This document shows, piece after piece, positions 22,624 to 34,761 of a stretch of 64,000 bases of DNA. Below the pieces are notes generated by a model. It did not search any database and was not told the DNA's origin. It worked only from the letters and a program-made list of their open reading frames with translations. Source of the stretch: Bacteroidia bacterium (GTDB lineage Bacteria > Bacteroidota > Bacteroidia > Chitinophagales > Chitinophagaceae); NCBI GenBank assembly GCA_030426665.1, contig JAUHYD010000011.1:62001-126000 (forward strand). Reading direction: 5' to 3'. A program made the position numbers and the translations under genes. Within the stretch, counting starts at the first letter, position 1; each line of letters begins with the position of its first letter.

Positions 22624-25600
22624 ATGCTTACAAAAATTATTGAGTTCTCCGTGCGGAACAAACTCCTGATAGGGCTATGGGTAATTGCCCTAATTGGTGT
22701 CGGCATTTATCAGACAACACAACTACCTATTGACGCAGTACCGGATATTACCAACAATCAGGTACAGGTTATCACAATTGCCCCCTCATTTGGTGCAACA
22801 GATATAGAACGCCTGGTAACCTTCCCGATAGAACAAGCTAACAGCAACATTTCAGGAATGAAAGAAATTCGCAGCTTTTCCCGGTTCGGGCTATCACTTA
22901 TAACCATTGTATTTAACGACGGCGTCGACATCTATTGGGCACGACAACAAGTAGCAGAGCGACTTCAACAGGTACAAAATGAGATTCCGAAGGGTATCGG
23001 CACACCTACCTTAGGCCCTATCTCAACCGGACTGGGTGAAATTTATCAATATGTTGTGCGTCCGCGTAAAGGCTATGAAAACAAATATGACATCTCAGAA
23101 CTTAGAACAATTCAGGACTGGATAGTACGTAGACAGCTGCTCGGCGTAAAAGGGGTTGCAGAAGTCAGCAGTTTTGGCGGAAAACTAAAACAATATGAAA
23201 TAGCCGTAAACCCCGACAAGCTTAATGCATACGGCATATCCATAAATGATGTATTCACTGCTTTAGAATCTAACAACCAAAATACCGGTGGTGCCTATAT
23301 CGAAAAAGGGCCGACAGTGCTCTACATCCGTAGTGAAGGCCTGATTGGCAGCCTTGAGGACATCGGAAACATTTCGATTGCCGGAAAACACAACGAGACG
23401 CCCTTGTTTATACGAGACATAGCCGACGTGAGAGTAGGATATGCAACAAGGTATGGCGCCCTTACGTATAACGATAAAGGCGAAGTTTCAGGTGCCGTAG
23501 TGATGATGCTAAAAGGAGCAAACAGCAACAAGGTTATTAAAAATGTAAAAGAACGAATAGCACAAATTCAGAAAACACTGCCCGAAGGCATTGTCATTGA
23601 ACCGTTTCTTGACCGAACAAAAATGGTAAACAATGCCATTAGCACCGTTACACACAACCTTTTGGAAGGGGCACTTATCGTGATACTCATATTGGTGCTT
23701 TTTTTGGGCAACCTCAGGGCAGGCCTGCTGGTTGCTTCTGTAATACCGCTGGCAATGCTATTTGCGATATGCATGATGAACTTGTTTGGCGTTAGTGGCA
23801 ACCTGATGAGCCTGGGCGCTCTGGATTTCGGATTGATAATAGATGGGGCAGTTATCATAGTAGAGTCGACCATGCATCAATTGACCCGCAATGCGCGATT
23901 TCGGCAAATGACCGACTTATCCAAAACAGAAATGAATAAAACAGTTATCAATTCTGCCGGTAAAATGATGAATAGTGCTGTGTTTGGTCAGATAATCATT
24001 TTGATAGTTTACTTACCCATCCTTACCCTTCAGGGAATAGAAGGCAAAATGTTCCGACCAATGGCGCAGACAGTTGCTTTTGCATTATTGGGTGCATTCT
24101 TGCTTTCCATTACGTATATCCCGATGATGAGCTCCTGGGTTCTAAGCAAAAAGGTAAGTCTCAAAGACACGACCTCTGACCGTATTATGCATCGTGTCGA
24201 AGCCTTCTATCAAAAATTCTTATTAAAATCGCTCAGGATTCAGAAAAGCATCTTTGTTATAGTTATTGCCCTTTTTGTCGTTGCGGTTTTTATAATGACA
24301 AGGTTAGGCGGCGAGTTTATTCCATCTTTAGAAGAAGGTGATTTTGCTGTTGACACAAGAGTGCTTACGGGTAGCAACCTGAATACAACAATTGAGCGCA
24401 CACAAAAAGCTGCACATATACTATTAACCAGATTTCCGGAAGTGATCAAAGTAGTTTGCAAAATAGGAAGCGGTGAAGTGCCAACAGACCCAATGCCGAT
24501 GGAAGCGTGTGACATGATGGTTATTCTGAAAGACAAAAAGGACTGGGTTTCCGCCGAAACCTTCCCTAAATTATCTGAAAAAATGAGCAAAGAATTGGAA
24601 GATGTACCCGGAATCACGACAGGCTTTCAATATCCTGTAAATATGCGATTCAATGAGCTGATGACCGGAGCCCGACAAGATGTAGTACTTAAAGTATACG
24701 GAGAAAACCTCGACACACTTGCATCAGTTGCCGGCCGATTGGGAAAAATTGTGAATACTGTAGACGGGGCACAAAACCTGTATGTAGAACCAATTACCGG
24801 CATGCCGCAAATCTTGATAGATTTCAATCGACACATGCTCGCGCAATACCATCTATCGGTTGCAGACGTCAATAAAGTAGTAAATGCAGCATTTGCAGGA
24901 CAGAGTGCGGGCTTGGTGTTTGAAGGCGAGAAACGCTTTGACATGGTAGTAAGACTAAACGCCGGAGATAGAAAAAACCTTGAAGACGTACAAAATCTAT
25001 TGATTCCCACACCATCGGGAAATCAACTTCCACTCTCTCAGCTGGCAGATGTACAGATTAAAGACGGACCAAATCAGATACAGCGGGAAAACGCGCGTCG
25101 AAGAATCATAGTTGGTTTCAACGTAAAGGATCGTGATGTTCAAAGTATAGTGAAAGAACTTCAGAAAAAAGTAGACGATCAGATAAAACTCCCCCCCGGT
25201 TACTCTGTTACGTACGGTGGTTCTTTTGAGAATTTGAATGAGGCAATCAGCCGCTTGATGATTGCCGTTCCGGTATCTCTAATACTGATATTTATCCTTT
25301 TATTCTTTGCGTTCAAGTCAATTAAAGAAAGCCTTTTGATTTACACTGCCATCCCATTATCTATCATCGGTGGCGTATTCCTGTTGGCGGCAAGGCAAAT
25401 GCCATTCAGCATTAGTGCCGGCGTAGGCTTCATTGCTCTGTTTGGGGTTGCCGTATTGAATGGCATTGTGCTTGTTGCGGAGTTTAATCGCCTTCGGATA
25501 AAAGGACTCGGAAACATGGTACGCGTTGTGGTAGAAGGAACCAGATCTCGTCTGCGGCCTGTGCTTATGACTGCCTTTGTAGCGTCTTTAGGTTTTATAC

Positions 25601-26970
25601 CAATGGCATTGAGCAATGGTGCAGGCGCCGAGGTACAACGCCCACTGGCAACGGTTGTAATAGGCGGCCTGATGGTCGCTACTTTCCTTACTCTTTTTGT
25701 ACTACCAATGCTATATATCGCCTTCGAAAAAGGAATAAGTAAGCTTCCCCGCATAAAAAAAGCAACAACAGCAAGCGTCCTACTTTGCTTAATGTGCATT
25801 GGAAATGCGGAAGCGCAGACACCTATCAGATTGGATAAAGCCATTGAAACCGCCCTCCGAAACAACCGAAATTTAAAAAGTGAAAAGCTTAAATCCGACT
25901 ATGCAGAAGCGCTCGTAAAATCAGCAGCCAGCCTTCCGCAAACCGACATCACAAGCAGCTATGGCCAGGTAAACAGTGTATATAATGACACGTATTTCGG
26001 TGTCTCTCAAACTATCAGTTTTCCGACAGTCTATAAAAGGCAAAAGGAACTTTTCAACGAAGAGTGGAAACTAGGCGTACTGAATGTTTCAATGAAAGAA
26101 TTCGAGTTAAAGAAAGCGGTAACACAGGTATACTATGACATTCTTTATTGGCAGAAAAAAGAGAAATTGTTGAATAAAGCAGACACACTCTACTCCAACA
26201 TCGATGACAGAGCAAGTTTGCGCCTCGAAAAAGGAGAAAGTAACATTCTCGAAAAAGCTACTACCGAAAATCAAAAGGCAGGCATAAATATACAGCTGAT
26301 GCAGGTGCAACAAGAGCTAAAAGTAGCAGGATTGCAATTGCAACTTTTACTAAATACCGACACCCAATACATGCCAATCGCAGATGGGCATGACATGTCG
26401 GTGCCACTTTCTGAAGCCGACTTAATCCAAAACCCTGCCCTACAATTGATAAAGCAACAAAAGAACATCGCCACCTACAATACGAGGACAGAACAAGCCA
26501 AGCTATTGCCGGATTTGATGTTGGGGTATAACAACACCAGCTTTATAGGTGTTGGCGCGGACAACAACTATTATGATCGAAGTAAACGCTTTCATTCCGT
26601 TCAGGCAGGCATATCACTGCCGATATTCACACAGGGGCAACGAGCAAAGATAAATGCATCAAAAATTGCTGCAAGTGTTGCTGAAAGCAATTATCAAGCT
26701 GCCGATGCGATCTTGCAAAGCAAATACAAAAAGTTACTTGCAGGATGGCAAAGCAAACTCAAAATTGCGAGGTATTACGAAGATGCAGGCTTAAAAAACG
26801 CAACTCTTATTGAAGAAACAGCAGAGAAACAATTTATGAATGGTGAAATAAATTACATCGAATTTGTAATGCTCATTAACCAATCTATCAGTATCAGAAA
26901 CAATTACACCGATGCCGTAAAAGCCCTGAACGATACTATTATTCAATTAAATTACCTCACTTCAAATTAA
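22624..26970 (+). CDS. CusA/CzcA-type heavy-metal RND pump fused to a TolC-like outer membrane channel
   Basis: 1448 residues. The first 1030 form a heavy-metal-efflux RND permease: N-terminal FSVRNKLLIGLWVIALIG, and in helix 4 the proton-relay pattern LDFGLIIDGAVIIVES with the D, D and E diagnostic of CzcA/CusA. A hydrophobic, signal-like stretch (SVLLCLMCIGNAEAQ, about residue 1050) then leads into about 385 residues of TolC/CusC type with paired coiled-coil repeats (IRLDKAIETALRNNRNLKSE and NPALQLIKQQKNIA). Normally channel and pump are separate proteins. The fused form is known in Bacteroidota. Substrate (Cu, Ag, Co, Zn or Cd) cannot be told. The adaptor gene follows 6 bp later. Confidence 0.92.
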   Translation: MLTKIIEFSVRNKLLIGLWVIALIGVGIYQTTQLPIDAVPDITNNQVQVITIAPSFGATDIERLVTFPIEQANSNISGMKEIRSFSRFGLSLITIVFNDGVDIYWARQQVAERLQQVQNEIPKGIGTPTLGPISTGLGEIYQYVVRPRKGYENKYDISELRTIQDWIVRRQLLGVKGVAEVSSFGGKLKQYEIAVNPDKLNAYGISINDVFTALESNNQNTGGAYIEKGPTVLYIRSEGLIGSLEDIGNISIAGKHNETPLFIRDIADVRVGYATRYGALTYNDKGEVSGAVVMMLKGANSNKVIKNVKERIAQIQKTLPEGIVIEPFLDRTKMVNNAISTVTHNLLEGALIVILILVLFLGNLRAGLLVASVIPLAMLFAICMMNLFGVSGNLMSLGALDFGLIIDGAVIIVESTMHQLTRNARFRQMTDLSKTEMNKTVINSAGKMMNSAVFGQIIILIVYLPILTLQGIEGKMFRPMAQTVAFALLGAFLLSITYIPMMSSWVLSKKVSLKDTTSDRIMHRVEAFYQKFLLKSLRIQKSIFVIVIALFVVAVFIMTRLGGEFIPSLEEGDFAVDTRVLTGSNLNTTIERTQKAAHILLTRFPEVIKVVCKIGSGEVPTDPMPMEACDMMVILKDKKDWVSAETFPKLSEKMSKELEDVPGITTGFQYPVNMRFNELMTGARQDVVLKVYGENLDTLASVAGRLGKIVNTVDGAQNLYVEPITGMPQILIDFNRHMLAQYHLSVADVNKVVNAAFAGQSAGLVFEGEKRFDMVVRLNAGDRKNLEDVQNLLIPTPSGNQLPLSQLADVQIKDGPNQIQRENARRRIIVGFNVKDRDVQSIVKELQKKVDDQIKLPPGYSVTYGGSFENLNEAISRLMIAVPVSLILIFILLFFAFKSIKESLLIYTAIPLSIIGGVFLLAARQMPFSISAGVGFIALFGVAVLNGIVLVAEFNRLRIKGLGNMVRVVVEGTRSRLRPVLMTAFVASLGFIPMALSNGAGAEVQRPLATVVIGGLMVATFLTLFVLPMLYIAFEKGISKLPRIKKATTASVLLCLMCIGNAEAQTPIRLDKAIETALRNNRNLKSEKLKSDYAEALVKSAASLPQTDITSSYGQVNSVYNDTYFGVSQTISFPTVYKRQKELFNEEWKLGVLNVSMKEFELKKAVTQVYYDILYWQKKEKLLNKADTLYSNIDDRASLRLEKGESNILEKATTENQKAGINIQLMQVQQELKVAGLQLQLLLNTDTQYMPIADGHDMSVPLSEADLIQNPALQLIKQQKNIATYNTRTEQAKLLPDLMLGYNNTSFIGVGADNNYYDRSKRFHSVQAGISLPIFTQGQRAKINASKIAASVAESNYQAADAILQSKYKKLLAGWQSKLKIARYYEDAGLKNATLIEETAEKQFMNGEINYIEFVMLINQSISIRNNYTDAVKALNDTIIQLNYLTSN

Positions 26971-30091: not shown

Positions 30092-31165
30092 CTACTCGCC
30101 TGAATACCTTTTACTGGTAGTGTGCCATAGATGACTACCTGCTATCCAGGCCTCTAAACCTATCAAGTATCTGCGAAGTTCCGGCGTAGCATAGACCATT
30201 AGCTTCGCACATTCATCCTCGAATATTCTTAGCAAATCATTGTGTAAACGAACCCCCATTCTGTGTGCGGCTTCGAATGAACATCCTTCCTCCTTTTGAA
30301 TTGCTTCCCGTATTCCGAATTGATGAACACCAGCCTCTTCTTCTTTCTCAGACGAGACCAAATCATTGACCATCACACAAATAAGCCCGGCTATTTTCAC
30401 AACCTGACGAACCTGTGGTAATGAATAGATATTGTGCGGCAACTCATAAGCGTCAACAATGTCAATCATAGTCAGGCAAGGTGTAAAACCATTCATTTGT
30501 CTTCCCCCAAGGTACTCCCAAACAGGGGCTACCATCTTATTGATGCGCCAGCTTGACTCCTGACACATGGCGACAAACAGGCACATATCTTCGTGCCGTA
30601 CTCTCGCGACTTGCTGTGGTGTACCGTACTTAGCTGTCTTACCGATATATTCCCGCAATGCGACATGGACAGGATGAACCCCTAAACCGTTATTGGTGTC
30701 ATCGTTGTACTTGGGCGTAAAAAAAGGCTCATCGAGTGCGGACATGCACAATGACAAGTTCCGACCAACCATATCAAGGGTCGAGCCTGCGCGCTTGTCA
30801 TCAACAAAGTAGTCATCTAACCCGAAAAGAGCTAACATCGCCTGACCCGCCAAAAACAAACGTTCTCTATCTTCAGAGAAAGCATAGGTAAGCATCACAT
30901 ATCGTCCGAAATTACACTTTCGGAGATAGTCTAAATGACCTTCATAAAGACCGATATCTTCAGCCCATTTCAGCAACCGCTCATTTAACGATTCGCCCAA
31001 TGCGACATCGTCACGATAAGGAGGACGATGACGCAACTCTGTATCCGACTCCTGATCAGGCCGGTTCAGAATTGATGCAATATTTGTTGTCTTTGTCCCC
31101 AAACCTTTCAGACCCGAAGACAATACACGCCTAAGTAAATCATGCGTATTCGTCGTAGTTTGCAT
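30092..31165 (-). CDS. Terpene cyclase of the 2-methylisoborneol synthase type, likely encapsulin cargo
   Basis: Class I terpene synthase, 357 residues from the ATG at 31165 (a TTG two codons earlier is also in frame). The aspartate-rich metal motif is DDYFVDD (about residues 117-123), the NSE motif NDLVSSEKE (about 267-275), and the C-terminal RY pair is present (WHTTSKRY). VWEYLGGRQMNGFTPC and DAYELPHNIY match the 2-MIB synthase family closely. The first 50 residues are low-complexity and carry VLSSGLKGLGTKTT, similar to the ILRGPTGPGTTSL segment of the S. coelicolor enzyme. In S. griseus the N-terminal disordered region loads the enzyme into a Family 2B encapsulin. The shell gene lies 15 bp upstream here. 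No methyltransferase for making 2-methyl-GPP is present, so the product is uncertain. Confidence 0.9.
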   Translation of the reverse strand: MQTTTNTHDLLRRVLSSGLKGLGTKTTNIASILNRPDQESDTELRHRPPYRDDVALGESLNERLLKWAEDIGLYEGHLDYLRKCNFGRYVMLTYAFSEDRERLFLAGQAMLALFGLDDYFVDDKRAGSTLDMVGRNLSLCMSALDEPFFTPKYNDDTNNGLGVHPVHVALREYIGKTAKYGTPQQVARVRHEDMCLFVAMCQESSWRINKMVAPVWEYLGGRQMNGFTPCLTMIDIVDAYELPHNIYSLPQVRQVVKIAGLICVMVNDLVSSEKEEEAGVHQFGIREAIQKEEGCSFEAAHRMGVRLHNDLLRIFEDECAKLMVYATPELRRYLIGLEAWIAGSHLWHTTSKRYSGE

Positions 31166-31180
31166 AGTCAATAGCTAATT

Positions 31181-32608
31181 TTAATGAATGCCCACTTCGA
31201 CATTTCCAAGAACACCAAGTGCGTCCGGAACAAGCACTGCAACGGAGAAATAATTTGTTATTAAATAAGAGATAATTGCTTTTTCATCAATGCCCATATA
31301 CCTTACTGAAAGACTAGGCTCAATTTCTTCCGGGATTCCCATCTGATAAAGCCCGACAACTCCCTGATTTTCTTCGCCTGTTCTCATGGCTAAAATAGAA
31401 GTAAGTCCATCAACAATCGGAATTTTGTTGCAGGAAAAAATCGGAACGCCTCTCCATGCAATAGTTTCCTTTCCGTCTACTTCTACGGTATCCGGATAAA
31501 TACCACGCTTTGTGCATTCCCTCAAAAAAGCAGCAATAGCTTTAGGGTGAGCGAACATGTACTGAGTTTTTCTCCGCTTAGACAACAATTCATCCATATC
31601 ATCCGGTGTCGGAGGACCGCTTTCAGTCTGTATGCGTTGGCGATAGTCAACATTATGAAGCAACCCGAAATCCCTGTTGTTAATCATTTCATACTCCTGC
31701 GCTTCCCTGAGTTCTTCTACAGTGAGCCTTACTTGTTCCTCTGTCTGATTATAGGGCGAGTTATACAAGTCAGCAACCTTAGTATGTATTTTCAATACTG
31801 TCTGTCCCGTATGCAACTCATACTCACGAGGAGCAGCATCGTACGCCACAAACGTACTGGGAATCTCAGGTTCATTATCATGCAACCCTGCAAACATTTC
31901 TATCTTTGTTTCCCCCTTTCGGTTCGACTTATTTCTAAGTATGGAAAGTTCTTCTTCGGTATGCAAGTATTTATCCATACCCTCAGACCCTCTGAGGTAT
32001 TCTTTTATTATTTCCTTTGCTTTATCATAACCGATTTTCAATACCGTAACATCGGTACGTGCTATCGCATCATAAATGAAGGAAGGAGTTTTTGCGTCTG
32101 CAGCATCTACATTATTATGGAACAATCCAAACCCGCCAAAATACTGCTCTGGCCCCATTGTACCGGTAGCATTATCAAAATCGAAAACCCCGGGTTCAAA
32201 AAATGCAACTTTACCGCTGTAAATGATATAAACGTGAGTAGCCTCATTGCCATGGGTTACAATCTGCGTATTTTTGGTGAACTTTTCTTCCTCTGCAACC
32301 GCCGCAATTCGTTTCAACAGCTCATCATCTTCAATATTGCTTAAACAGGGCATCTGAGACAATGACGGAGCAAATATTCTGGGAGTACTGTCGGATGTAT
32401 CAAAAGTCACCATTCCTGGACGAATCTCAAGAATCTGCCGTCTATTGACCCGATAATAACCGCCGCTAACGTTAACCCACGGCAAATACTTTAAAAGATT
32501 CCTCGACGAAATCGACTCCATCTGGGGTCTCGTCTTTGAGATTTCTGTCAACGGTCTAGCTTGCTCTTTGGGCAAACTAGTAATCCTGGAATTGAATTTT
32601 TCGCTCAT
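31181..32608 (-). CDS. Family 2B encapsulin nanocompartment shell protein (EshA-like)
   Basis: 475 residues with the two-part layout of Family 2B encapsulins. Residues 1-85 and about 215-475 form the HK97-type shell ([65 protein letters not shown], and the C-terminal [25 protein letters not shown]). Residues about 88-205 are an inserted cyclic-nucleotide-binding fold ([18 protein letters not shown]). These proteins were once read as transcription factors (EshA). In S. griseus the shell encloses 2-MIB synthase and its inserted domain does not bind cAMP. Here the phosphate-binding cassette also lacks the usual Glu and Arg. It is first in a two-gene operon with the terpene cyclase. The ATG at 32608 is the only sensible start. 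Confidence 0.92.
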
Positions 32609-32909
32609 GTTTTATGACATTTAAAATGTTTATTCATCCACAAAATAGTAAAATAATCACACAGTGTATATATTGAAATATAAACAGATTAATGCCCTGC
32701 ATTAACATTAAGACGAAGTATGTTCGTTAATAGAAATATCCAAACAACAGAGATTACATGTTTAACAACGTTGCATTTTTCAATTTGCCTTTCCTGCAAC
32801 TAATATTCATAGACTCAATGTGTCAGAATAATTTAAAAAAAACTTTGTCTTTAATCACTATATTTGTTCACGTCTATTGAGCCCGGTTTGTAACAATAAA
32901 AAATAGCAC
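32609..32909. other. Divergent control region between the encapsulin and adenylate cyclase genes
   Basis: 301 AT-rich bases. Present are a 13-bp palindrome ACATTTAAAATGT (32617-32629) 9 bp upstream of the shell ATG, a palindrome ACACAGTGT (32659-32667), and the cyclase promoter box (32859-32866). No consensus TGTGA-N6-TCACA Crp site and no reverse-strand TAnnTTTG box were found, so the encapsulin promoter is not located. Confidence 0.5.
32859..32866 (+). promoter_or_regulatory. Promoter -7 box of the adenylate cyclase gene
   Basis: TATATTTG matches TAnnTTTG and ends 43 bp before the ATG at 32910. A TTTA at 32832-32835, 23 bp upstream, is a weak -33 candidate. Confidence 0.5.
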
Positions 32910-34127
32910 ATGTTTAAATTTGCAAAACGGTTTGCATACAATGAGCACGACTCTCCTGACCTTGCTTTTCAGAAAGAGTTGCTGGCTATCATTTCTTCCT
33001 TTCTTGTCTTGTGTGGTGTAGTTTGGTGGCTGATGTGGTATTTGATATTTGGATGGTCAATTCCTACAGTGGCTGCTGGTTTATTTGGCATCATGGTATT
33101 TGTAATGATGATAGTTTCTCACGTTACAAAAAAGCACCTATTGTTAGTCCATGCAGCCTTTTTTGGCACAATCATCGTCCCGGTTACTTGTCAGTGGGCA
33201 TTGGGCAGCATGCACAATAGTGGTATGATTATAGCCTGGGCTTTTCTCACACCTCTCGGGATACTGATTTTTGCATCAATTCGCCCGGCAATTGTATACA
33301 TGCTGATTTTTATCATATACATCCTAATAACGGCAATATTTCAACCGGTATTTCCCGGTCGCGAACTGATAGCCTCGGACGGGATAATTAAGATGTTCTA
33401 CTCTATGAATCTGGTAACATCATTTACGGTTATTTTCGGGACTTGCGCCTGGTTTGTACACACAATTAAGGCCGAAAAGCGTGTCTCTGAAAGCCTACTC
33501 CTGAACATCCTGCCAAACGATGTGGCACAGGAACTGAAAAAGTTCGGCAGGGTGGAACCCGTCAGCCACGAACACGCAACTGTGCTATTCACAGACTTCA
33601 AAGGCTTTACGGAAATTACAGAGTCTATTACAGCAAAGGAATTGGTGGCCGAGATTAACCATTGCTTCGGAGCTTTTGATGAAATAACAACCAAATACAA
33701 CATTGAAAAAATAAAGACCATCGGCGACTCGTATATGGCTGTGGGCGGAAACTTCAGCGGAAATGCTTGTACACCCTGGCATGTAATCTCTGCGGGACTG
33801 GAATTGCAAGAGTACATCAGCAAACGAAAAAAAGAACGCGAGAAAGTAGGGAAATTTGGTTTTGAGATGCGCGTAGGCGTTCATTCCGGACCGGTAGTAT
33901 CCGGGGTAGTTGGGGTAAAGAAATTCCAATTTGACATTTGGGGCGACACCGTAAACATTGCATCCCGAATGCAATCAAACGGAGAAATAGGCGAATTGAA
34001 TATTACAGGAACCACGCGCGACCTGGTGAAAGATAAGTTCGATTTCGATTTCCGGGGAAACTTGCCCGTAAAGGGTAAGGGTGATATGCCCATGTACTTC
34101 GTGAGGCGAAAGCAAGAGAACGCATAA
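32910..34127 (+). CDS. Membrane-bound class III adenylate cyclase
   Basis: Makes cAMP from ATP. The N-terminal 190 of 405 residues hold about six hydrophobic helices (for example IISSFLVLCGVVWWLMWYLI, GLFGIMVFVMMIVSHV, PAIVYMLIFIIYILITA). Next comes the linker LLNILPNDVAQELKKFG and a class III catalytic domain. All key residues are visible: metal-binding Asp in LFTDFKGFTEI (about residue 228) and IGDSYMAVGG (about 272), the ATP-selecting Lys in EKIKTIGD and Asp in FDIWGDTVN (about 341), and the transition-state Asn and Arg in DTVNIASRM. GTP-selecting residues (E and C) are absent, so ATP is the expected substrate. It faces away from the encapsulin gene across 301 bp and is followed by idi. 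Confidence 0.92.
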   Translation: MFKFAKRFAYNEHDSPDLAFQKELLAIISSFLVLCGVVWWLMWYLIFGWSIPTVAAGLFGIMVFVMMIVSHVTKKHLLLVHAAFFGTIIVPVTCQWALGSMHNSGMIIAWAFLTPLGILIFASIRPAIVYMLIFIIYILITAIFQPVFPGRELIASDGIIKMFYSMNLVTSFTVIFGTCAWFVHTIKAEKRVSESLLLNILPNDVAQELKKFGRVEPVSHEHATVLFTDFKGFTEITESITAKELVAEINHCFGAFDEITTKYNIEKIKTIGDSYMAVGGNFSGNACTPWHVISAGLELQEYISKRKKEREKVGKFGFEMRVGVHSGPVVSGVVGVKKFQFDIWGDTVNIASRMQSNGEIGELNITGTTRDLVKDKFDFDFRGNLPVKGKGDMPMYFVRRKQENA

Positions 34128-34245
34128 AACGCACATCCCAAAAGTAGACATAGTTTTTCTTCAAAAAAGTATTTAATTGAAGTCATTTCAAGAAAAAGTA
34201 GCGCAGAAATTTTATTGCCGTTGCAGCCATTAATCAAAGAAGTCT

Positions 34246-34761
34246 ATGAAGGAATTAGTTGTTTTGGTGGACGAGAATGATACACAGATCGGCACAATGG
34301 AAAAGCTGTTAGCGCACACTTCCGGCAAGCTCCACCGGGCAATATCCGTGTTCATTTTCAATACAAAAGGCGATATGCTGCTACAGCAACGCGCAGATGG
34401 CAAGTACCATTCGGCAAACCTCTGGTCTAATGCCTGTTGCAGTCATCCAAGACCTGACGAACCTGTCCCAGACGCAGCAGCACGTCGTCTATACGAGGAA
34501 ATGGGGATGGTTTGTGAACTAAAGGAAAATTTCAGCTTTATCTATAAGGCGGCATTCGCCAACGGGCTGACAGAATATGAATTTGACCATGTTTTCACCG
34601 GCGTAAGTGATGAAATACCAAAACCAAATATCGAAGAGGTTGGTGCCTGGGCTTATCTGTCAAAATCCGACCTAACTAACGACATACACCACCACCCCGG
34701 CAAGTACACCGAATGGTTTAAGATTTGTGTAGCTAAGTATCAGGCAAACCTATTTAAATAG
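34246..34761 (+). CDS. idi: Isopentenyl-diphosphate delta-isomerase, type I
   Basis: Interconverts IPP and DMAPP, the building blocks of all terpenes. The 171-residue Nudix-fold protein has the metal-site histidines in KLLAHTSGKLHRAISVFIF, the catalytic cysteine region WSNACCSHPRP (E. coli Idi C67), the Nudix-like ARRLYEEMGM, and the catalytic glutamates in LTEYEFDHVF. Length and order match the type I enzyme. It follows the adenylate cyclase by 118 bp on the same strand and lies 1.6 kb from the terpene cyclase operon, which suggests a role in supplying precursor to that pathway, though it may also serve general isoprenoid synthesis. Confidence 0.94.
   Translation: MKELVVLVDENDTQIGTMEKLLAHTSGKLHRAISVFIFNTKGDMLLQQRADGKYHSANLWSNACCSHPRPDEPVPDAAARRLYEEMGMVCELKENFSFIYKAAFANGLTEYEFDHVFTGVSDEIPKPNIEEVGAWAYLSKSDLTNDIHHHPGKYTEWFKICVAKYQANLFK

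What the first reader, a model, noticed from the sequence alone, without database searches (positions are those of the whole stretch)
30092..34761. Terpene-loaded Family 2B encapsulin locus with divergent adenylate cyclase and IPP isomerase
Four adjacent genes fit one pathway: a 2-MIB-synthase-type terpene cyclase (30092-31165), a Family 2B encapsulin shell (31181-32608), a membrane class III adenylate cyclase (32910-34127) and idi (34246-34761). Encapsulin and cyclase are one operon with a 15-bp gap. The shell carries an inserted cyclic-nucleotide-binding fold, and a cAMP-making enzyme lies just across a 301-bp control region. The isomerase would supply terpene building blocks. Most described Family 2B terpene systems are actinobacterial. 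A Bacteroidota version that pairs shell, cargo, cAMP source and precursor enzyme would be a distinctive variant. The functional link between the two divergent halves is inference from position.
Basis: partly seen in the sequence, partly recalled or inferred. Interest (0 to 1): 0.9.

Follow-up and report, generated by a model that had tools for sequence, protein, structure and literature searches.

The report
Terpene nanocage with matched membrane sensor
A Bacteroidota bacterium carries genes for a virus-like protein cage that probably houses a terpene-making enzyme, next to a membrane sensor protein whose sensing part changes together with that enzyme in the related bacteria compared, which suggests that the cell may sense the very terpene it makes.

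Summary
In detail: a Family 2B encapsulin shell (encap_f2b 573 bits, cut-off 400), a terpene-cyclase cargo gene 15 bp downstream, a divergent 6TM class III adenylate cyclase, then idi. Sensor-shell-cyclase order holds in 11 of 11 independent Bacteroidota loci read; in the genus a close sensor orthologue occurs in exactly the 6 of 35 genomes with the shell. idi follows the sensor in 5 of 6 genus loci, 0 of 5 others. The proposed cAMP-to-shell link is weak: the window's insert lacks the canonical Glu and Arg, and the sensor's output is swapped (two adenylate cyclase lineages; in three loci, inferred from shared contig lengths, a histidine kinase) while the 6TM input stays. Unexpectedly, over 9 loci that input covaries with the terpene cyclase (r 0.91), not with the shell gene between them (0.40) or its own catalytic domain (0.20); all 21 sensor positions that follow cyclase type lie in the 6TM part. 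Best reading: a terpene nanocompartment with a membrane receptor matched to the cyclase, perhaps to its product. It rests on nine loci and one main split; ligand, product and encapsulation are untested.

The parts
30092..31165 (-). terpene cyclase, putative encapsulated cargo (357 aa from ATG; 359 aa from the in-frame TTG at 31171)
   Evidence: Terpene_syn_C_2; f2_encap_cargo2 343.6 bits under the cut-off 400; nearest solved: 4zq8 and 2-MIB synthase 3v1v; only match in the genome
30797..30817 (-). DDxxxD-type metal motif (DDYFVDD) of the cyclase
   Evidence: read; identical in 9 of 9 loci aligned; motif name recalled
30341..30367 (-). NSE-type metal motif (NDLVSSEKE) of the cyclase
   Evidence: read; N, S and E conserved in 9 of 9 loci aligned; motif name recalled
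31094..31114 (-). N-terminal loading-type motif GLKGLGT; relatives read GPxGLGT
   Evidence: consensus GPTGLGT in PMC8346489 section 8 part 1; GPxGLGT in the other 10 of 11 loci
31181..32608 (-). Family 2B encapsulin shell protein (475 aa)
31997..32287 (-). cyclic-nucleotide-binding-fold insert of the shell, with degenerate phosphate-binding cassette
32609..32909 (.). divergent control region; a TATCTTGTGC-like element before the shell is shared by related loci
   Evidence: by eye and k-mer count; promoter role inferred
32910..33494 (+). 6TM input domain of the sensor (residues 1-195), the part that covaries with the cyclase
   Evidence: helical model, mean pLDDT 85; covariation; same domain fused to histidine kinases
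33561..34103 (+). class III adenylate cyclase catalytic domain (output) of the same gene
   Evidence: PF00211 residues 218-398; six catalytic residues kept in 72 of 72 aligned proteins, the window's included
34246..34761 (+). isopentenyl-diphosphate isomerase (idi), genus-level partner behind the sensor
   Evidence: NF002995 and TIGR02150 over cut-off; behind the sensor in 5 of 6 genus loci

Best explanation
The locus is a terpene-making nanocompartment with its own membrane sensor. SHOWN by sequence: a Family 2B shell, a terpene cyclase with intact metal motifs and a loading-type N-terminal motif, and a divergent 6TM protein with an intact adenylate cyclase domain, kept together in every Bacteroidota locus of the clade that was read. 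SHOWN in 9 loci: the sensor's 6TM input follows the type of the cyclase, while its catalytic domain does not. INFERRED: the cyclase is packed in the shell and turns an isoprenoid diphosphate (in this genus fed by the idi behind the sensor) into a lipophilic terpenoid. The 6TM domain binds that terpenoid, or something specific to it, in the membrane and reports it as cAMP (in some relatives as phosphotransfer), which adjusts expression of the locus and other genes. It would work like the Vibrio CqsA/CqsS pair, a synthase beside a 6TM receptor for its own lipophilic product, but with a caged terpene synthase and with adenylate cyclase as the usual output.
For: Conserved trio, 11 of 11 loci read. 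Genus co-occurrence 6 of 6 against 0 of 29. Shared contig lengths: 34 of 70 clade shells, 22 of 23 on contigs of 20 kb or more, against 0 of 48 other Family 2B shells. The 6TM domain is rare: 61 proteins at E 0.001 among 434 word-sharing candidates of the large search; 4 of 396 genomes of the order at E 1e-15, the own one included. Distance covariation over 9 loci: cyclase-6TM r 0.91, 0.90 after removing the shell core, 0 of 5000 permutations as high; cyclase-shell core 0.40; cyclase-catalytic 0.24; 6TM-catalytic 0.20. Same A/B split in the cyclase and 6TM trees (100/99 each); the catalytic domain rejects it, p-AU 0.0005. Type-diagnostic positions: cyclase 33, 6TM 21, linker plus catalytic 0, shell 4; of 84 possible splits the observed one has the highest count for cyclase and for 6TM. 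6TM domain found with two adenylate cyclase lineages and with histidine kinases. Precedent: a CqsS 6TM receptor for a lipophilic autoinducer controls an adenylate cyclase when fused to it (PMC4821796, passages).
Against: No product, ligand or assembled cage is known. The covariation rests on 9 loci and mainly one A/B split; with the 6 type-A loci alone cyclase-6TM is 0.63 (136 of 5000 as high) and cyclase-shell is equally 0.63. G782 has a type-B-like 6TM (two pieces: 2 A/8 B and 1 A/5 B/2 other) but an intermediate cyclase (15 A/16 B/2 other); L007 leans A in its cyclase (16 A/6 B/11 other) while its sensor fits neither (4 A/2 B/14 other). The shell tree only just fails to reject the A/B split (p-AU 0.060), so block transfer of cyclase, shell and 6TM followed by exchange of shells is not formally excluded. 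Over 30 contig-length pairs the shell follows the catalytic domain (0.61) more than the 6TM part (0.49). The histidine-kinase link rests on equal contig lengths, not on DNA read here.
Confidence: 0.45

Rival explanations
1. The 6TM protein is a dedicated regulator of the locus that senses a general membrane cue (redox, lipid state, light, stress) rather than the terpene. Its agreement with the cyclase comes from old block transfers of cyclase, shell and 6TM, with later exchange of shells.
For: Divergent control region with a shared element; the 6TM domain belongs to a wider family of 6TM adenylate cyclases of about 30-50% identity whose fetched surroundings (L114-L119, three of them short contigs) hold no shell or cyclase of this kind; shell p-AU for the A/B split 0.060.
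Against: Three shell segments outside the insert, among them those next to the cyclase and next to the control region, show nearly no A/B signal (within-type against between-type distance 0.21/0.22, 0.24/0.25, 0.29/0.31), although the segment nearest the cyclase correlates with it at 0.47; one transfer would have carried the shell along.
Confidence: 0.32
2. One reading: cAMP made by this enzyme binds the inserts above the two-fold pores of the shell and gates flux or cyclase activity.
For: The conserved neighbour is a catalytically intact adenylate cyclase; the insert keeps the fold; PMC12407261 describes the inserts above the two-fold pores (passages); insert and catalytic domain distances correlate at 0.72 over 9 loci, though the shell core does so equally (0.71); 38 of 67 readable clade shells keep a Glu at the cassette.
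Against: In the window and in 25 of 67 readable clade shells the canonical Glu is Gly, and the canonical Arg is absent in the window; PMC12407261 reports that a Family 2B insert binds no cyclic nucleotide; the genome has 28 adenylate cyclase-domain hits at E 1e-20, so this one is not the only cAMP source; three shells keep the insert where the linked sensor is a kinase.
Confidence: 0.12
3. Neighbours by chance or hitchhiking, no functional link.
For: Adenylate cyclase genes are abundant in this genus (28 hits in the own genome).
Against: 11 of 11 loci read, mostly with different flanks; 6 of 6 against 0 of 29 in the genus; 0 of 17 non-Bacteroidota Family 2B loci show an adenylate cyclase hit at E 1e-6 within the fetched DNA.
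Confidence: 0.03

Closest known systems
Family 2B encapsulin with 2-MIB-synthase-like terpene cyclase cargo (PMC8346489)
   Same: shell fold with inserted nucleotide-binding-type domain, single-domain cyclase with N-terminal GPxGLGT motif, shell and cargo side by side, IPP isomerase enriched in such operons
   Different: that survey counts 724 actinobacterial, 114 proteobacterial and 64 cyanobacterial of 904 terpene-cyclase operons; this clade is Bacteroidota, its cyclases fall under the NCBIfam cargo cut-off, and a 6TM sensor is a steady partner
Vibrio CqsA/CqsS quorum-sensing pair (pair recalled; CqsS receptor in PMC4821796, passages)
   Same: synthase of a lipophilic compound near a 6TM receptor; 6TM receptor able to drive kinase or, in a chimera, adenylate cyclase output
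   Different: product here would be a terpenoid made in a cage, with the shell gene between synthase and receptor; homology of the 6TM domains was not tested; no ligand known
6TM class III adenylate cyclases (Rv1625c type; PMC4821796, passages)
   Same: membrane anchor of about six helices, intact class III catalytic residues
   Different: this 6TM clade is tied to terpene encapsulin loci and is also found on histidine kinases
Family 2B cysteine-desulfurase-type encapsulins of other Bacteroidota (L086-L089)
   Same: Family 2B shell, Bacteroidota
   Different: neighbour enzyme is an Aminotran_5 protein, shell only 38-43% identical; no orthologous 6TM sensor, but L086 has a short soluble nucleotide cyclase

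Membership tests
Family 2B encapsulin | HK97-type SrpI-like shell fold | tested here: met
Family 2B encapsulin | cyclic-nucleotide-binding-type domain inserted in the shell | tested here: met
Family 2B encapsulin | cargo gene adjacent, with N-terminal loading-type motif | tested here: met
   15 bp gap; GLKGLGT here, GPxGLGT in the other 10 loci
Family 2B encapsulin | assembly into a cargo-loaded icosahedral cage | not testable with these tools
   needs purification and electron microscopy
NCBIfam f2_encap_cargo2 terpene cyclase | score over the curated cut-off of 400 bits | tested here: not met
   343.6 bits; 323.7-355.3 bits in 6 relatives: a consistent sister group
2-methylisoborneol synthase | class I metal motifs intact | tested here: met
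   DDYFVDD and NDLVSSEKE conserved; nearest solved cyclases 4zq8, 3v1v
2-methylisoborneol synthase | partner GPP C-methyltransferase | tested here: inconclusive
   none seen among the neighbours inspected; the whole genome was not searched for it
class III adenylate cyclase | two metal Asp, adenine-selective Lys/Asp, transition-state Asn/Arg (roles recalled) | tested here: met
   all six in 72 of 72 aligned proteins, the window's included
cAMP-binding CNB domain | phosphate-binding cassette Glu and Arg (recalled) | tested here: not met
   window: Gly for Glu; Phe by register (own count) or Asp by the phmmer alignment for Arg
CqsA/CqsS-like producer-receptor pair | synthase gene beside a 6TM receptor gene | tested here: met
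   within one gene (the shell lies between) in 11 of 11 loci read; receptor role itself untested
CqsA/CqsS-like producer-receptor pair | receptor binds the synthase's product | not testable with these tools
   only covariation supports it
CqsA/CqsS-like producer-receptor pair | 6TM domain homologous to CqsS | not tested
   no CqsS sequence was fetched

The most novel reading that the evidence does not exclude
The 6TM domain is a bacterial terpenoid receptor. Each locus pairs an encapsulated terpene synthase with the receptor for its own product, so the cage is the sender and the 6TM adenylate cyclase or kinase the receiver of a volatile or membrane-borne signal. When the cyclase changes type, the receptor domain changes with it, while the shell and the signalling output do not.
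Probability: 0.33. Interest if true: 0.93.

Novelty: new variant of a known kind. Interest (0 to 1): 0.78.

Why it matters
Terpene-cyclase Family 2B encapsulins were surveyed mainly from Actinobacteria, Proteobacteria and Cyanobacteria (PMC8346489), and why a cell would cage such an enzyme is, as far as I know, open. A steady partner whose sensing domain changes with the caged enzyme gives a handle on purpose: the product may be a signal. It also offers candidate ligands for a 6TM adenylate cyclase anchor, a part whose function a 2025 review title calls a blind spot (PMC12414865, listing only). The parts are small, and a named species, Algoriphagus namhaensis (to my knowledge cultured and harmless), carries a shell and a sensor listed with one contig length (1,071,616 bp), so the idea is directly testable.

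Tried and rejected
cAMP gating of the shell: downgraded for the reasons under rivals.

Chance neighbour: rejected.

CRP-type site in the control region: a TGTGA-N-TCACA scan (consensus recalled) found none in the 8 loci scanned; the TATCTTGTGC-like element is shared but was not tested statistically.

Shell-sensor distance correlation over 34 contig-length pairs: 0.43, 0 of 2000 permutations as high; in the 30 adenylate cyclase pairs of that run shell-6TM was 0.49 and shell-catalytic 0.61. So at that scale the shell follows the output more than the 6TM part; this fits modularity but is no evidence for a shell-6TM match. The script then stopped with an error; classes were assigned anew. The 30 lack P0063's sensor, whose motif the split missed.

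G782 was hoped to be an independent check of the cyclase-6TM match; its cyclase is intermediate. A general idi link: not borne out (5 of 11 loci, all in the genus).

Literature: 'encapsulin' with 'adenylate cyclase' 0 papers (with 'cyclic nucleotide' too); with 'histidine kinase' and 'terpene' 4 papers, listing only, none on this by title; with 'Bacteroidetes' and 'terpene cyclase' 2 papers. The library holds open-licence papers only. Read: PMC8346489 outline and section 8 part 1; PMC12407261 and PMC4821796 passages only. The primary report on the S. griseus shell was not available.
Full report

Is the neighbourhood conserved? Eleven independent Bacteroidota loci were read: the window, L002, L003, L004, L005, L006, L007, G782 (L137 plus L138), G784 (L139), G1446 (L135) and G1473 (L136). 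L084, L085, L091 and L092 are second copies of L003, L005, L002 and L004 and were not counted. In 11 of 11 the 6TM adenylate cyclase is divergent and adjacent to the shell, and the cyclase follows the shell. In G782 the sensor is split by a contig end: its first 80 residues lie beside the shell on one contig, the rest, followed by idi, on another. In L007 the sensor start is truncated and the shell frame holds a stop. Flanks mostly differ, but pairs of loci share a few flank families: L002 and L003 (c5), L003 and L004 (c6, c7), window and L007 (c9), window and L002 (c10). In the genus, 6 of 35 genomes have the shell. A close sensor orthologue (573 bits or more; 72-80% identity in the relatives) is found in exactly those six; the next best is 419 bits. 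The own genome has 28 adenylate cyclase-domain hits at E 1e-20, so one neighbour alone would mean little; the recurrence is what counts. No adenylate cyclase hit showed in 17 of 17 Family 2B loci of other phyla, nor in 30 of 30 Bacteroidota loci of another family, for which only about 1.5 kb or less on each side was held. The three of those looked at more widely (L087-L089) and L086 carry an Aminotran_5 enzyme or its homologue instead of a cyclase.

A wider count without DNA. The protein searches list the longest contig of each protein. Of 70 clade shells (58% identity or more), 34 share an exact contig length with a sensor; for contigs of 20 kb or more it is 22 of 23; of 48 other Family 2B shells, 0. 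This is an inference from equal lengths; in L136 the listed shell P0058 and sensor P0188 were found side by side, letter for letter. The sensor lists held only the best hits, so the unmatched shells (36 of 70) do not show absence.

idi. It follows the sensor in the window, L002, L004, G782 and G784, but not in L003 (5 of 6 genus loci), and in none of L005, L006, L007, L135, L136. The own genome has a second idi, 60% identical, beside a phytoene-synthase-type gene, an amine-oxidase-family gene and a MerR/B12-type regulator, so the window's copy looks pathway-specific.

Does cAMP act on the shell? The phosphate-binding cassette reads YFGGFGLF in the window. The canonical Glu is Gly, and where PKG has Arg the window has Asp in the phmmer alignment, or Phe if one counts back from the next strand (my own count); in neither reading is it Arg. 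In 67 of 70 clade shells that a pattern could read, the Glu position is E 38, G 25, D 3, P 1; an R-x-A-type pattern appears in 4, about five residues from the canonical place by my count. On the other side, insert and catalytic-domain distances correlate at 0.72 over 9 loci, as the shell core does (0.71). So the step is not supported, nor excluded.

The output is exchangeable. The region search with residues 1-195 of the sensor found 61 proteins: 55 with an adenylate cyclase domain and 6 with HisKA plus HATPase_c (P0223 checked). Three of the six kinases share contig lengths with shells P0052, P0055 and P0065. Among linked sensors the adenylate cyclase domains fall in two sets: mean within-set identity 78 and 69%, between sets 48.5%, while 6TM domains across sets reach 81%. 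Of 34 linked sensors 20 are AC1, 11 AC2, 3 kinase. The three kinase-linked shells form one clade (100/100) next to AC1-linked shells (100/99), but the six kinase-type 6TM domains fall in two separate places, one near type A, one within the clade that holds the type-B sensor P0188 (that tree has long branches and 13 open forks). So the kept element is the 6TM input. Outside this clade the 6TM family occurs at about 30-50% identity on adenylate cyclases, with no shell or cyclase of this kind in the DNA fetched around six of them.

The input follows the cyclase. Over 9 loci (all but G782, split, and L007, truncated), pairwise distances of the cyclase correlate with those of the 6TM domain at 0.91 (0.90 with shell-core distance removed; 0 of 5000 permutations as high), but with the shell core at 0.40, the insert at 0.43 and the catalytic domain at 0.24; 6TM and catalytic domain, though one gene, correlate at 0.20. 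The locus thus behaves as two sets: cyclase with 6TM, and shell with insert and catalytic domain (0.71-0.85 among themselves). With L007 included cyclase-6TM is 0.94 and cyclase-shell 0.65; within the 6 type-A loci alone both are 0.63. Trees of cyclase and 6TM give the same split: A = window, L002, L003, L005, L006, L135; B = L004, L139, L136 and, with less certainty, G782 (100/99 in both). The catalytic domain rejects this split (p-AU 0.0005) and does not reject the genus as a group (0.29); cyclase and 6TM reject the genus (0.0001, 0.0002); the shell core is undecided (0.060 and 0.053), the insert too (0.155 and 0.078). Group B was named after seeing the cyclase tree. Positions that separate A from B: 33 in the cyclase, 21 in the sensor (residues 40-170, all 6TM), 0 in its linker plus catalytic part, 4 in the shell. 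Of all 84 ways to take 3 of 9 loci, the observed one has the highest count for cyclase (33, next 3) and for 6TM (21, next 5), no position at all for the catalytic part (whose own best split gives 39) and the fifth-highest count for the shell. The shell gene lies between the two parts that agree, and its segments show nearly no A/B signal. Diagnostic cyclase positions include 112 and 113 just before the DDxxxD motif, 229, 231, 233 and 234, and 265 and 267 just before the NSE motif (359-aa numbering), regions where product specificity is often set (recalled). Checks outside the nine are mixed: G782 has a type-B-like 6TM and an intermediate cyclase, L007 an A-leaning cyclase and a sensor of neither type.

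Reading. A terpene-making cage plus a membrane sensor whose sensing domain is matched to the enzyme. The simplest functional reason for such a match is that the sensor perceives the product, as 6TM CqsS perceives a lipophilic autoinducer and can drive an adenylate cyclase when fused to it (PMC4821796, passages seen). Shown: gene order, conservation, intact motifs, exchange of adenylate cyclase outputs, covariation in 9 loci. Inferred: encapsulation, product, ligand, regulation, and the kinase-type loci. The sample is small and the covariation rests mainly on one split seen against different backgrounds, so I put the full mechanism at 0.45 and the receptor reading proper at 0.33.

Noticed in passing
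   Followed up: partly
window 22624-26970 (+): One 1448-aa ORF holds an RND pump (ACR_tran, residues 5-1034) fused to an outer-membrane efflux domain (OEP to residue 1446), an odd topology for one polypeptide.
   Followed up: partly
L007:9968-11371: The shell frame of this relative is interrupted by an in-frame stop in a conserved stretch between insert and C-terminal part, and its sensor lacks the start of the 6TM domain; sequencing error, decay or recoding not resolved.
   Followed up: partly
L139:2903-4335 (G784): The shell gene is split over two frames near the end of the insert.
   Followed up: no
G000:C40:100957-114969: Six adenylate cyclase-domain hits with frames of about 680-750 aa lie in tandem in the window's own genome; 28 such hits genome-wide at E 1e-20.
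   Followed up: no
G000:C11:155662-156168: Second idi, 60% identical, in a carotenoid-type cluster with a MerR/B12-binding regulator.
   Followed up: partly
window 32609-32909 and related loci: Besides the TATCTTGTGC-like element, a TTAACA-N-TCA...GATACG-like stretch recurs upstream of the shell in several genus loci (by eye).
   Followed up: no
P0017, P0128, P0136: One contig length (20949 bp) is shared by a shell and two different sensors, a possible double-sensor locus.
   Followed up: no
P0196, P0198: Two relatives of the sensor (604 aa) carry about 200 extra C-terminal residues after the adenylate cyclase domain; PF01966 is listed for P0198.
   Followed up: no
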